DNA of 64,000 nt from Pohlia nutans. Taxonomy: Eukaryota; Streptophyta; Bryopsida; Bryales; Mniaceae. The notes beneath the pieces are model-generated. The model was not told where the DNA came from, searched no databases, and saw nothing but the letters and a program-made list of their open reading frames with translations. This document shows, one piece after another, positions 10,401 through 61,087 of the stretch (position 1 is its first letter; the number at the start of each line of letters is the position of its first letter). Location of the stretch: positions 21,938,336-22,002,335 of the forward strand of contig CM040091.1 in the NCBI GenBank assembly GCA_022496805.1, in the 5' to 3' direction. The position numbers and the translations under genes were made by a program.

Positions 10401-13311
10401 ATAAACGTGATACTAAGACTATTTCAGGAGACCACTTCGAATGATCCTGTTGTGCCCAAATTTTATATCACCACAACATTGCATGTGTTGGCCAAAAGTG
10501 GACAAAAGAAAGTCTCTCTATGACGTGCTTCAAAAAACATGAGGCTCACTTTGAGCTCATCGGTTAAACCCTAAAGAACCAAGAAGCCCAAATTGGGCCT
10601 CATGTTTTTTTAGCGAGTATTTTGTGGTTCAAATTTCATCGTTTCTTGACCAACACATACAATGTTCTTCACTGATTCAAGTGATATAAAATTTGGTTCC
10701 TATTTTTCACAATGTGATCGATTGAATTTGTCATTTTTAAAACCATGAATGCTTGGTCCTTCGAGGGTTAACAACACTTACTCGCCTACCAGACGAAGAA
10801 GCTCCTTCTGCTTCGGAAACACAATCGACCGGTCCTTGGCCTCCAACTGCTTCTGGTAATCTTGAAGCCCCTCATTCAAAGCACTGATCGCCTGCTCAGC
10901 CTCCTGCTTCTTGTTCTCGGCAACGTCGGCAAGAATTTGCGCCTTGCTCTGATTAAATACCCGTGCAGCCTGTCGGACACTCTGCACAATCCCTTACCAC
11001 TGTTTCTCCGTCAGTGTGGAAGCAATACAGCTTATCCTCCATAACATATGACACTCCATAATATGACGATATTATTGTTTCAAGCAAGACACATGTAACA
11101 CTAAGATGAACTATACCTTTTGCAAAGCCCTGAAACATTATAATCAGTGGGATTCTTACTTAGAAATATGAAAAGGGAGCATCACAAGCAGCGAAGTCTT
11201 TTGTGGCTATACTGATCGCCAACTTGCTATTTGAAAAATGGACTTGCTATGTTGTTATAGAAAATTTGGGTAAAAAAATAGAGTATATCGCTATACTCTT
11301 CCCTTATCATTCTATATAAAGCTATGTATTTGTAGTAAAACAATCAGCTACGCTACGAGGAGCTCTGACCGGAAGGACGAGAATGCATTTCAGTGGAATC
11401 ATGGACGGAATATATTTGCTACAGTGATATTTAGCCCAAGAAAATGGATGTCTCTGCAATGCCTCTTCCCGATGGTCAGAGCCCATAAATTGTAAATCGC
11501 CAAAATTAAATGCGTTCTATTATTCAAGTTTCAATTTTCAAATCGCCAATGGGGTTCACTTGAAAAAATGAAAAAAAAAATTACTGATATTTCACAAGTG
11601 TAAGGAAAGCCAATGCAAAGCAACAATACCCGTTCCACGGCACCAAGAGCCTTCTCGCCGGGCACTTTCATTTCATCCGTGATCTCTTCAAGCGATTTCT
11701 GGACCTCCTTGATAGCCTTATTGTTGATGGGGAGGGCGTACCGGAGCAAAGCGTTGGCGTCCTTGATGGGCGGACCTGCAATCAGAACACTCAATTCGGA
11801 GATGGCTGGACCTCTTTCAAAGCTTACGGCATCCGCAGCGAAGGGCATCAGCAATGCCGCTGTGACTGCCACACAAGTGGCGCACTTCTGCAGCACTTTC
11901 GTAAACGAACCTTCATCCTCCTGAAACGGGAACAACCAGAAAAATTCATATTAGGTCACAGTGTTGCTTAAAAGCTAGAAATCTACAAATCCTCCGAAGT
12001 ATATCAAACGCTCCCGCTTATCAACTGAAGCATTACACTGGCTATGGTTCATACTTAACCCTTGAACGACATATGCTTTTCTGATAACACACCTAAAATC
12101 TCTTTTAAATTCCATTTTAAGCATTGTTCTGTTTTTAATTCACTTTGGCTCTATTCTAAAGAAGTACAGATCTCTCTAAGGTACTCGGTTTGGCATTTTA
12201 AAAACCCCATTTGATGGAATGGAGTAGAAGATATGAGCAAGATTCTCCCAAAATATAACCAAGCCCGTGGGGCTTGCATTGTCGTTTAAGGGTTAACCCC
12301 TAAACGACTGCTCGTGCTATATTGTACTCCATCTGCCCCACTAAAAATCCCGCAGATTTTGGCCTGTTCTAACTTGAGTTTATCTTTAATAGTAGTATGT
12401 AGTTTTGTGTCATTCTCATTGTCCATCCCGTTTGAAAGTGGACAAGATTAACGTTTGAAGTATAAAATATAGAACGAATATTGCAAAAAATATATATGAA
12501 ATGCCAAGAACAACGGATTTTTAGTGGGGGTTTTATTGAGGGAGTATTATTTTTCACTTTATAAACGGTAGTTGAGAAACATGATGAGTACTAAAGTTAT
12601 GACAAACATCATATTGTTCTTTCAATCTACAGAAGAATTTCTTATACAACTAGGTACATACACGGTCCTCAGGAGTGTAAATTCGCTTGAGATGAATAAG
12701 AAGCTAGAAACAAAGCTCAGACACCCTAATGCAGATGTAAGGGCGAGGCTTCCAAGAACCACATTGTGCGCTATTGTTCTTTCAATCTAAAGATGAATTT
12801 CTTATAAAAATAAGTACAGACTCGTTCCTCAGGAATGAAAATTCGATGGAGATGAAGAGGAGGCTAGAAACAACGGCGTATACGAAGCTCAGACACCCTA
12901 ATGCAGATGTAAGGGCGAGGCTATTGTTTTTTCAATCTAAAGATGAATTTCTTATAAAAAATTAAGTACATACACGTTCCTCAGGAGTGAAAATTCGATG
13001 GAGATGAAGAGGAGGCTAGAAACAACGGCGTATACGAAGATGAGACACCCTAATGCAGTATATAAGCGCTAAGAGGCTCCCAAGATCTACATTGGGGTTT
13101 GAATTGAGTATAGATTGTGACTCACCTTGGGATGTCCGTTGGGCAACGAAGCGCGAATGGCGTTATAACACGGGCGAGTGCGAGTGCTACAAGCTTGATG
13201 ATTCTGCTGCTGCCTGCACTGCAATGCAAAGAGTCCTTCCTTGCGACACCCACGACTTGTTGTTGTCGTAGCGGTCGCCAGCGACCCCTGGAGCACTCCG
13301 GCGACCACCAT
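7411..13311 (-). CDS. CYP38: Thylakoid-lumen cyclophilin CYP38/TLP40-type, 7 exons, 448 aa
   Basis: Exons in order: 13311-13126, 11920-11630, 10981-10782, 10357-10122, 9342-9200, 8884-8813, 7629-7411. All introns are GT-AG, phases agree, and the joined frame is 1347 nt, close to the 437 aa of Arabidopsis CYP38. Residues 1-62 (MVVAGVLQGS...) are Ser/Thr/Arg-rich like a chloroplast transit peptide. A hydrophobic segment at 75-93 ending AADA fits lumenal cleavage. A helical region follows (GPPIKDANALLRYALPI; then KQKELLRLVGD), then a cyclophilin-like domain with DGYNAPVTAGNFVDLVER, FVVQTGDPEGPAEGF, PFNAFGTMAMARE and NDSGSSQVFWLLKESELTP. In Arabidopsis the protein acts in the lumen in photosystem II assembly and repair; peptidyl-prolyl isomerase activity is uncertain there. 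The protein ends NPTYK, slightly shorter than in Arabidopsis. The start is the first ATG of the exon. Confidence 0.95.
7722..8179. repeat. Composite inverted-repeat region in last CYP38 intron
   Basis: An outer inverted pair (CCACCTCATTTGTGCC near 7722-7739 and its complement near 8162-8179) encloses a 30-bp tandem duplication (unit GCCACAAGTTGGAAGTCACC...) and two MITEs. The larger MITE spans about 7933-8143 with inverted ends of roughly 60 bp containing GTGAGTGCCACTTT. All of it lies within the intron between exons 6 and 7. Confidence 0.6.
7841..7922. mobile_element. 82-bp PIF/Harbinger-type mini-MITE
   Basis: Ends GGGCCTCTT(T/A)ACAC are inverted and the arms continue as AGAGGCGAGAAGC, so almost the whole element is a hairpin. 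TAA flanks both sides (7838-7840 and 7923-7925). It sits in the last intron of CYP38 and shares end sequence with the 362-bp element at 3212. Confidence 0.85.
9063..9200. repeat. Intronic repeat reaching the exon 5 donor
   Basis: The motif AATATTGTCATATTATGGAG occurs in tandem here and once more in inverted orientation at about 11030-11100, in another CYP38 intron. The 9194-9199 splice donor of exon 5 lies at the edge of the repeat, so the present intron boundary adjoins inserted sequence. Confidence 0.5.
9731..9973. mobile_element. Stowaway-like MITE, diverged copy
   Basis: Inverted ends beginning CTCC and containing AACTGTCCTAGTTCTTGGC (left) match the complement of the right end. The interior TTTAATAGTAGTATGTAGTT to CGTTTGAAGTATAAAACATA is shared with the element at 12327-12544. 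TA target bases are not preserved at this copy. Confidence 0.65.
10564..10771. mobile_element. TTAA-flanked MITE, family A, in CYP38 intron
   Basis: TTAA occurs at both ends, followed by ACCCTAAAGAACCAAG on the left and preceded by CTTGGTCCTTCGAGGG on the right. Interior landmarks of family A (GAGTA, CACTGATTCAAGTGATATAA, CACAATGTGATCGATTGAAT) are present. Fragments of the same family lie at about 9410-9600, 9990-10110 and 10440-10560, so this gene has been hit or rearranged repeatedly by one family. Confidence 0.75.
12055..12296. mobile_element. TTAA-flanked MITE, family C, in CYP38 intron 1
   Basis: The element is 242 bp with ends TTAACCCTTGAACGAC and GTCGTTTAAGGGTTAA. Its interior (CCTAAAATCTC, GGCATTTTAAAAACCCCATT, AAGATTCTCCCAAAATA) matches in inverted orientation the element disrupted at 28918-30388. 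The right TTAA continues into CCCCTAAACGAC, as if a second end of the same kind abuts it and shares the four bases. Confidence 0.82.
12327..12544. mobile_element. Stowaway-like MITE (218 bp) in CYP38 intron 1
   Basis: TA flanks both sides (12325-12326, 12545-12546). Ends begin CTCC(A/C)TC and share CCACTAAAAATCC, the general form of Stowaway termini (CTCCCTCCGT). It shares its interior with 9731-9973. Confidence 0.82.
12613..13064. repeat. Three tandem units of about 142-160 bp in CYP38 intron 1
   Basis: Units begin at 12613, 12773 and 12923, each opening ATTGTT(C/T)TTTCAATCT and containing TTCCTCAGGA, GAGATGAA and GACACCCTAATGCAG. The last unit ends shortly before the exon 1 donor (13125-13120). 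Open frames seen here are by-products of the repeat. Confidence 0.85.
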
Positions 13312-13736
13312 GACTGAATTCAAAAACAAGCAAATGCAACTTATCCTGAACGATGAGGAGCTTTTTGGTGTTTCTCGAACTCTCTGTTCTCTAATCGTGA
13401 AACCCAAAGCGTGAAGCTCCGAGTTCAAATGGAATGGAGTGAGGGAGTCAAAGGAAATTGCACGAATTGGGATGGAACGCAATCTGGCGAGACAGTGATG
13501 GAGTGTGGGCCGGGAGACCGGACGAGCCGGTTGTGCCGGTCGACTTTTGAATGTCGCCAGGTGAGCAGATAAGGAGTTCTGAACTGGGCCGCTTGGGGGA
13601 CTCCACGTGGATAAGCCTCAGGCTCATTGTGTACCGGTTTACCGGTACCTCCGATTGGGTGGATGCGGATATGGAGTGCGTCCGGAAGTCTGTTTTGTGT
13701 TTAAGTACTGGTAGTGATGAATTTCAGATATGAGAT

Positions 13737-60170: not shown

Positions 60171-60774
60171 GCTCGACCTCTGATTCGATGTATTCTTTCC
60201 TTTTTCAATGGAAATTGTCCGTTTGTTTCGACCCAAAAAATAATAAAATAATAAAAATCATCTAAGAGTTCAAATACCATTCTTTTTTGACCCGGAAAAT
60301 CTTTTCAAGGCCTCTCTGACCTTTACTAAATACTGTAGCCCAGACATGGGGTAATATATTTGGTGAAGCGATGGTATTACCGCCAAGAGAGGATAGGTGG
60401 TGCCGCCGGCGCCTGGCCCTTCACTTCCCTACTACTACAGTACCCTGCACTTCCCACCCAATGAAATCATTCATCCATTTGTTCATTCATTCATTCATTC
60501 ATAACCGATTGAATCCCAATAATAGTAATAATAATAACTGCCTCCTGGCTCTCTCTCTTCCTTGCAAGGAAAGTACTAACTCGTTTGCATGCCCCCAAAA
60601 AACCATAAAAACAATTGCAGCTAACGCTAACTCCTGGTCAGTACTACTCCTGAGTGTATAGTCCAGTACCACCATAAGTATGGCTGCTGAAAACCTTCTC
60701 TTTCTATTCTACTCTAGTAGTGCCACCCGTCCTTCAAAATAGTCGAGGACGGGCTTCTTGCATGAAAAGCCCTG

Positions 60775-61087
60775 CTAAACGTCCTAGCGTCCATAAACCG
60801 GATCACGAACATATTCAAAGCCTTGCAACTTTCTCATACAACCTCAAATGACTTTCATTCAAGTCATCTTTGTAAGCCTATTAAATTCTCTATCAATTAC
60901 AATAAATCTCTTGTGATGGGGGACCTGTTGATTATATTGGAGAGGCCTCCAATTACAACTATGTCAAATTTGTTGTGTGCATTTTAAGCTTGCAATGGTC
61001 CTCTCATGTACATCTGAGCTATGCCAAATTCTATTTTTGAGGCTAGCATTTACTTATGTTCAAAAGGTTGGTACACTTAGGGGTTAA
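60775..61087. mobile_element. TTAA element, family E, copy 2 (left end degraded)
   Basis: Inverted relative to 29989-30326. Shared stretches include GGATCACGAACA, ATGACTTTCATTCAAGTCA and CTCTCATGTACATCTGAG. The right end is GGGGTTAA at 61080-61087; the left has lost TTAACCC and starts CTAAACGTCC. Confidence 0.8.

What the first reader, a model, noticed from the sequence alone, without database searches (positions are those of the whole stretch)
10564..61087. A radiation of TTAA/CCC-ended (piggyBac-type) nonautonomous families in a plant
At least a dozen elements with both ends visible share TTAACCC...GGGTTAA but have unrelated interiors and lengths of 184-811 bp. Examples: 12055, 26851, 28925, 29989, 35542, 37394, 45383, 48491, 53484, 55345, 57884, 59922. 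TTAA duplication plus CCC-type ends is the known signature of piggyBac. I know of no well-described piggyBac expansion of this kind in land plants, and no matching transposase is in this window.
Basis: partly seen in the sequence, partly recalled or inferred. Interest (0 to 1): 0.85.

Follow-up and report, generated by a model that had tools for sequence, protein, structure and literature searches.

The report
piggyBac transposon expansion in a moss
A stretch of moss DNA is littered with small jumping genes of the piggyBac type, best known from insects and vertebrates, and the same genome carries many larger relatives that encode the enzyme that should move them, which points to a large and partly recent spread of this group in a land plant.

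Summary
The finding holds, with corrections. The window lies in the Antarctic moss Pohlia nutans: two scaffold lengths equal those of the published assembly. The shared end, pattern TTAACCCYTNAMNGNC, occurs 100,441 times in the genome against 72 for the reversed control. The genome has at least 116 PF13843 (piggyBac-type) transposase matches. In 10 of 20 fetched transposase loci, comparison within a family puts both element ends at TTAA beside CCC-type ends. Sites with a single TTAA before insertion (one reads TTGA) were found for two transposase elements, two window MITEs and two loci of the 551-bp family, so TTAA is a target-site duplication. The three catalytic aspartates align with solved piggyBac-type transposases. 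Best explanation: cut-and-paste piggyBac elements plus short nonautonomous members moved in trans. Which lineage moves which MITE is unknown; movement itself was not shown. The kind is known. I found no description of such an expansion in a land plant, though piggyBac has been listed from land plants.

The parts
10563..10771 (.). relative of 26851 with one changed end (GTTAAACCC), inside an apparent intron of the CYP38-like gene
12055..12296 (.). 242-bp nonautonomous element; its right TTAA (12293-12296) is also the left TTAA of a neighbouring end TTAACCCCTAAACGAC
   Evidence: Strict ends; aligned end to end with the interrupted element 28918-29959
26851..27080 (.). 230-bp nonautonomous element; whole or partial relatives at 9381-9478, 10651-10747, 22825-22933, 38399-38504, 48309-48487, 48597-48712, 55362-55582
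28918..29959 (.). 235-bp element interrupted by the 811-bp element at the second TTAA of its own end
   Evidence: With the insert set aside it aligns end to end with 12055-12296, which has one TTAA there
28925..29735 (.). 811-bp nonautonomous element, TTAA on both sides
   Evidence: TIR identity 19 of 20; pre-insertion site
29989..30326 (.). 338-bp nonautonomous element
   Evidence: Pre-insertion site in the neighbouring tandem copy 29874-29971, single TTAA; 4462 first-look candidates, 40 scored: 35 span 1-338, 4 miss one or two bases at one end, one begins at base 15; 20 of 20 fetched copies bounded by TTAA
35542..36147 (.). 606-bp nonautonomous element; right end less sure (alternative 36423)
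37394..37944 (-). 551-bp nonautonomous element, same family as 53484-54034, inverted
   Evidence: 82% over 559 columns
40535..41814 (.). possible 1280-bp element, or ends of two elements
   Evidence: TIR 14 of 20; only its part 945-1280 matches a longer stretch elsewhere (L019, 76%)
45383..45920 (.). 538-bp element with one decayed end (TTAACTCC)
48491..48716 (.). decayed relative of 26851; left end TTAATCC, right end not recognisable
53484..54034 (+). 551-bp nonautonomous element
   Evidence: 5185 first-look candidates, 40 scored: 36 span 1-551, the other 4 span 1-546, 1-548, 1-550 and 9-551; 3 further matches are pieces of nested hosts; 20 of 20 fetched copies bounded by TTAA
55345..55582 (.). 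relative of 26851 with one decayed end
57884..58067 (.). 184-bp nonautonomous element
59922..60170 (.). 249-bp nonautonomous element, young family
   Evidence: 71 first-look candidates, 40 scored: 39 span 1-249, one 1-248; the 39 besides the window copy are 96-98% identical to it
60775..61087 (-). relative of 29989-30326 with one end lost
   Evidence: 79.5% over 332 columns

Best explanation
These are piggyBac-superfamily DNA transposons of the moss Pohlia nutans. Larger elements (5.0-6.0 kb in most of the loci measured, one 8.0 kb) encode a DDD transposase; the window holds short nonautonomous members (MITEs). Shown: shared ends, transposases inside elements with those ends, duplication of TTAA on insertion, little-diverged copies. 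Inferred: the transposase binds the terminal repeats, cuts the element out, joins it to a new TTAA, and moves the short members in trans.
For: At least 116 PF13843 matches, best E 1.6e-81; by hand count 78 of 116 have no stop inside the match. In 10 of 20 fetched loci (L009, L011, L012, L014, L015, L018, L019, L021, L022, L028) homology between family members starts and stops at TTAA beside CCC-type ends. Six pre-insertion sites: L019 and L028, 338-bp and 811-bp window elements, L035 and L045 (the same two loci appear as tandem copies overlapping by 4 bases). End pattern 100,441 against 72 in the reversed control. The three aspartates line up with piggyBat (9c0f) in one stretch and with T. ni piggyBac (6x67) in two, of which the second, with the third D, is not significant on its own (i-Evalue 0.1); they are kept across the moss lineages aligned, the third in 7 of 8 because L027 is cut short. 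Core dN/dS is 0.09-0.27 in four of seven pairs.
Against: No credible ends were found for 4 of 20 transposase loci (L020, L025, L026, L027), and for 5 more only one end is backed by comparison (L010, L013, L016, L023, L024). No window MITE was seen to share interior sequence with a fetched transposase element: the local matches that I checked lie outside the elements. So MITE and transposase are linked by about 16 bases of end and by TTAA alone. The cysteine-rich tail did not hit PF13842 in six proteins scanned. One pre-insertion site reads TTGA. 38 of 116 matches hold a stop. Frameshifts were not assessed.
Confidence: 0.95

Rival explanations
1. The MITEs are moved by another superfamily that also duplicates TTAA (Sola3, recalled) and resemble piggyBac only at the ends.
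For: No interior link between a MITE and a piggyBac element was found. Sola was not searched for.
Against: The roughly 16-base end is shared with elements that carry PF13843 transposase.
Confidence: 0.03
2. TTAA is part of the element's end, not a target duplication.
For: If every target is TTAA, the copies alone cannot tell the two apart.
Against: Pre-insertion sites keep one TTAA, or TTGA in one; abutting elements share a single TTAA at window 12293 and apparently in L054 and L068.
Confidence: 0.01
3. The ends are chance or telomere-like CCCTAAA repeats.
For: The end resembles the plant telomere repeat over a few bases.
Against: Counts against shuffles and the reversed control; multi-copy families with constant boundaries.
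Confidence: 0.01

Closest known systems
piggyBac superfamily (T. ni piggyBac, PDB 6x67/6x68; piggyBat, 9c0f)
   Same: PF13843 domain, aligned catalytic aspartates, TTAA duplication, CCC at the element tips
   Different: Distant in sequence (phmmer E about 1e-26). In three of six proteins scanned the domain begins only at residue 479-624, after a long open N-terminal stretch. The host is a moss
piggyBac-type MITEs of insects (e.g. PMC9033116, search listing only; the comparison is recalled)
   Same: Short nonautonomous elements
   Different: Here two families have over 4000 first-look candidates each in one plant genome
PiggyBac entries in land-plant repeat tables (Ceratopteris, PMC6890710; PMC4438587, Table 2; passages seen)
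   Same: Same superfamily name, land plants
   Different: Ceratopteris: 1230 hits, 122,417 bp, 0.00% of the genome; no elements described in the passages seen

Membership tests
piggyBac superfamily | DDE_Tnp_1_7 transposase in the element | tested here: met
piggyBac superfamily | Catalytic DDD triad | tested here: met
   the third D is present in 7 of 8 aligned rows, L027 being cut short
piggyBac superfamily | TTAA target-site duplication | tested here: met
   Six pre-insertion sites, one reading TTGA
piggyBac superfamily | Terminal inverted repeats beginning CC(C) next to TTAA | tested here: met
piggyBac superfamily | C-terminal cysteine-rich DNA-binding domain | tested here: inconclusive
   Cys/His pattern by eye, no PF13842 hit in 6 of 6 proteins
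piggyBac superfamily | Seamless excision | not testable with these tools
   Needs an assay or population data
piggyBac superfamily (the window MITEs) | Derivation from a particular transposase-bearing element | tested here: inconclusive
   No shared interior with the 20 fetched regions; 20 of at least 116 were looked at
Sola3 | Sola transposase in elements with these ends | not tested
   No search was run

The most novel reading that the evidence does not exclude
Mosses host an old and diverse piggyBac clade of their own: at least eight transposase lineages kept by selection, some with a long N-terminal extension, that gave rise to tens of thousands of MITEs, some young enough to suggest activity today.
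Probability: 0.5. Interest if true: 0.7.

Novelty: new member of a known kind. Interest (0 to 1): 0.6.

Why it matters
piggyBac is known mainly from animals and is a genome-engineering tool (recalled). A moss with at least 116 transposase matches and about 100,000 ends would be a source of plant-resident transposases and a natural system for how plant silencing meets piggyBac. It may also account for an unnamed share of the 23.68% DNA transposons reported for this genome.

Tried and rejected
My first guess of the host (the fern Azolla) was dropped once scaffold lengths matched Pohlia nutans. A plan to name the host through rbcL (PF00016) did not complete and became needless. The inverted-repeat search gave mostly an AT repeat. 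Of the 15 candidate insertions printed, only 2 have TTAA at both edges and were followed; the other 13 are other kinds of difference. One search's best pair for L021 was wrong and was replaced; its pairs for L013 and L025 are not credible. Genome searches with the 811-bp element and with the bare pattern CCCCTAAACGTC did not complete. Structure prediction was not run, because the Pfam and PDB sequence matches were already strong. One search fetched an unrelated paper by a wrongly recalled DOI and was not used. PMC10619864 uses 'piggybacking' in another sense; PMC11704416 and PMC9860276 (passages) gave nothing on piggyBac in mosses.
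Full report
Host. The window is C7:21938336-22002335 of a 697.8-Mb genome. Contigs C1 (52,153,166) and C17 (30,709,574) equal the maximum scaffold and the scaffold N50 given for Pohlia nutans in PMC9247546 (passages seen), so the host is that moss. The window holds part of a CYP38-type gene with a PsbQ-like domain and F-box gene pieces, as expected of a plant.

Observation. TTAACCC and GGGTTAA occur 15 and 21 times, 36 together against a Markov mean of 9.3. Counting all trinucleotides after TTAA on both strands, CCC is fifth (36 of 908), and the four above it consist of A and T only. 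Selecting on TTAACCC alone, the next bases still share a pattern: Y at position 8 (95%), T at 9 (80%), A at 11 (86%), G at 14 (78%), C at 16 (73%), from 104 ends in 264 kb; 200 kb of this lies round transposases and is not a random sample. The stretches that I summed, decayed and doubtful ones included and the nested pair counted once, cover 6,798 of 64,000 bases.

Scale. The exact end TTAACCCCTAAACGNC occurs 15,970 times in the genome, reversed control 1. The looser TTAACCCYTNAMNGNC occurs 100,441 times, control 72: 0.144 per kb, against 11 in 64 kb (0.172 per kb) in the window, so the window is not unusual for this genome. At two ends each this would make about 50,000 elements; 25 of the 36 TTAACCC ends in the window do not fit the looser pattern, so I think that the true number is higher (inference). 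Three families were searched genome-wide. 551 bp: 5185 first-look candidates, 40 scored, the other copies 92-95% to the window copy. 338 bp: 4462 candidates, 40 scored, 90-92%. 249 bp: 71 candidates, 40 scored, 96-98%. First-look candidates are not confirmed copies. Among 20 fetched copies of each, the 338-bp and 551-bp families both average 96.1% pairwise and lie 0.9-4.5% and 0.7-4.7% from their majority sequence; the window copies lie 5.5% and 4.9% from it. The fetched copies come from the best hits, so this leans young.

Boundaries and target site. All 20 fetched 551-bp copies and all 20 fetched 338-bp copies begin and end with TTAA; one 551-bp copy begins TTAAACC and one 338-bp copy ends GCGGTTAA. 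The 12 flanking bases printed differ between copies, except in L035 and L045, which sit in the same kind of host. Pre-insertion sites: (i) L019's 5387-bp transposase element against L013, where the site reads TTGA; (ii) L028's 5641-bp element against L012, one TTAA; (iii) the 338-bp window element against the tandem copy 29874-29971; (iv) the 811-bp window element inside a 235-bp element whose relative 12055-12296 is unbroken; (v, vi) in L035 and L045 a 551-bp copy sits in the second TTAA of another 551-bp copy's end; these are the two tandem pairs that overlap by 4 bases. At window 12293 two elements' ends share a single TTAA.

Transposases. PF13843 gave 116 scored matches out of 1305 first-look candidates; by hand count 38 have a stop inside the match and 78 none. 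Twenty regions were fetched, from the upper part of that list and not at random. Ten have both ends backed by comparison within a family, though in some pairs the alignment runs one to about a dozen bases past TTAA. Five have one end backed by comparison (L010 and L023, which also have plausible pairs; L013, L016, L024); L017 has a plausible pair alone; four have none. The core matches 6x67 (1.1e-26) and 9c0f (1.8e-26). The aspartates of TIDE and DNWFTS in 6x67 align in the main stretch and that of GVD in a second one that is not significant alone; with 9c0f all three fall in one stretch. In T. ni these are D268, D346 and D447, as counted from that alignment and as recalled. Core dN/dS: L010/L023 0.12, L014/L028 0.11, L015/L018 0.09, L011/L013 0.27; L011/L017 0.10 but with dS 1.7; two pairs saturated. 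The N-terminal extension diverges faster (L010/L023 dN 0.57, dS 1.64), which fits weakly constrained coding sequence but does not prove it.

Relatives. The tree used 18 of 20 moss sequences (L009 and L012 dropped as too short) and 65 of the 120 listed hits (those of 400 residues or more). The moss rows need 9 changes, 8 of them forced by starred branches, and by my reading fall into eight groups inside a 57-row branch with support 100; the three rows with an organism's name (aphid, hake, sponge) lie on the other side. It is a quick tree with long branches, and its root is only a midpoint. Nearest unnamed proteins: P0014 95.7% to L028, P0002 82% to L027. They may be moss DNA in environmental samples, so the mixing does not show repeated transfer. 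In two protein searches (120 listed each, of 247 and 317) only those three hits bear an organism's name; none is a plant, but nearly all are unnamed.

Literature. The main text of the P. nutans genome paper has 0 occurrences of 'piggyBac' and gives DNA transposons as 23.68% (passages); its supplement could not be read. Searches for piggyBac with ferns, Azolla, land plants, green algae, moss, bryophytes, MITEs and Viridiplantae listed no paper whose title or abstract start describes such an expansion. The lists were capped (20 of 201; 15 of 3,669; 12 of 4,584; 12 of 276), and the library holds open-licence papers only. Against novelty of mere presence: PMC4438587, Table 2, lists PiggyBac among superfamilies in all groups studied, land plants being one (passages); a plant review names PiggyBac among plant superfamilies (PMC10794571, passages); the Ceratopteris paper lists 1230 short hits (passages).

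Verdict. Membership in piggyBac is well supported for the transposase elements. For the MITEs it rests on the shared end and the TTAA duplication. Movement in trans by these transposases is inferred, not shown.

Noticed in passing
window 370-1422 (+), 5278-6321 (-), 62145-63131 (+): Three Tc1-like transposase open frames of 350, 347 and 328 residues (DDE_3 and Tc3-type HTH) in a moss.
   Followed up: partly
window 10563-10771: A MITE relative starts about 10 bases inside an apparent intron of the CYP38-like gene, after a GTAAGT donor; splicing was judged by sequence only.
   Followed up: partly
window 13737-13821: ARAGORN calls tRNA-SeC and Rfam a tRNA; by its sequence it looks to me more like an intron-bearing elongator tRNA-Met (my reading).
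   Followed up: no
window 41812-42035: Foldback of two 108-base arms, 78% complementary, 8 bases apart, abutting a piggyBac-type end at 41814.
   Followed up: no
L016 and L024: Related regions sharing sequence over about 8 kb, with a TTAA-type right end in common.
   Followed up: no
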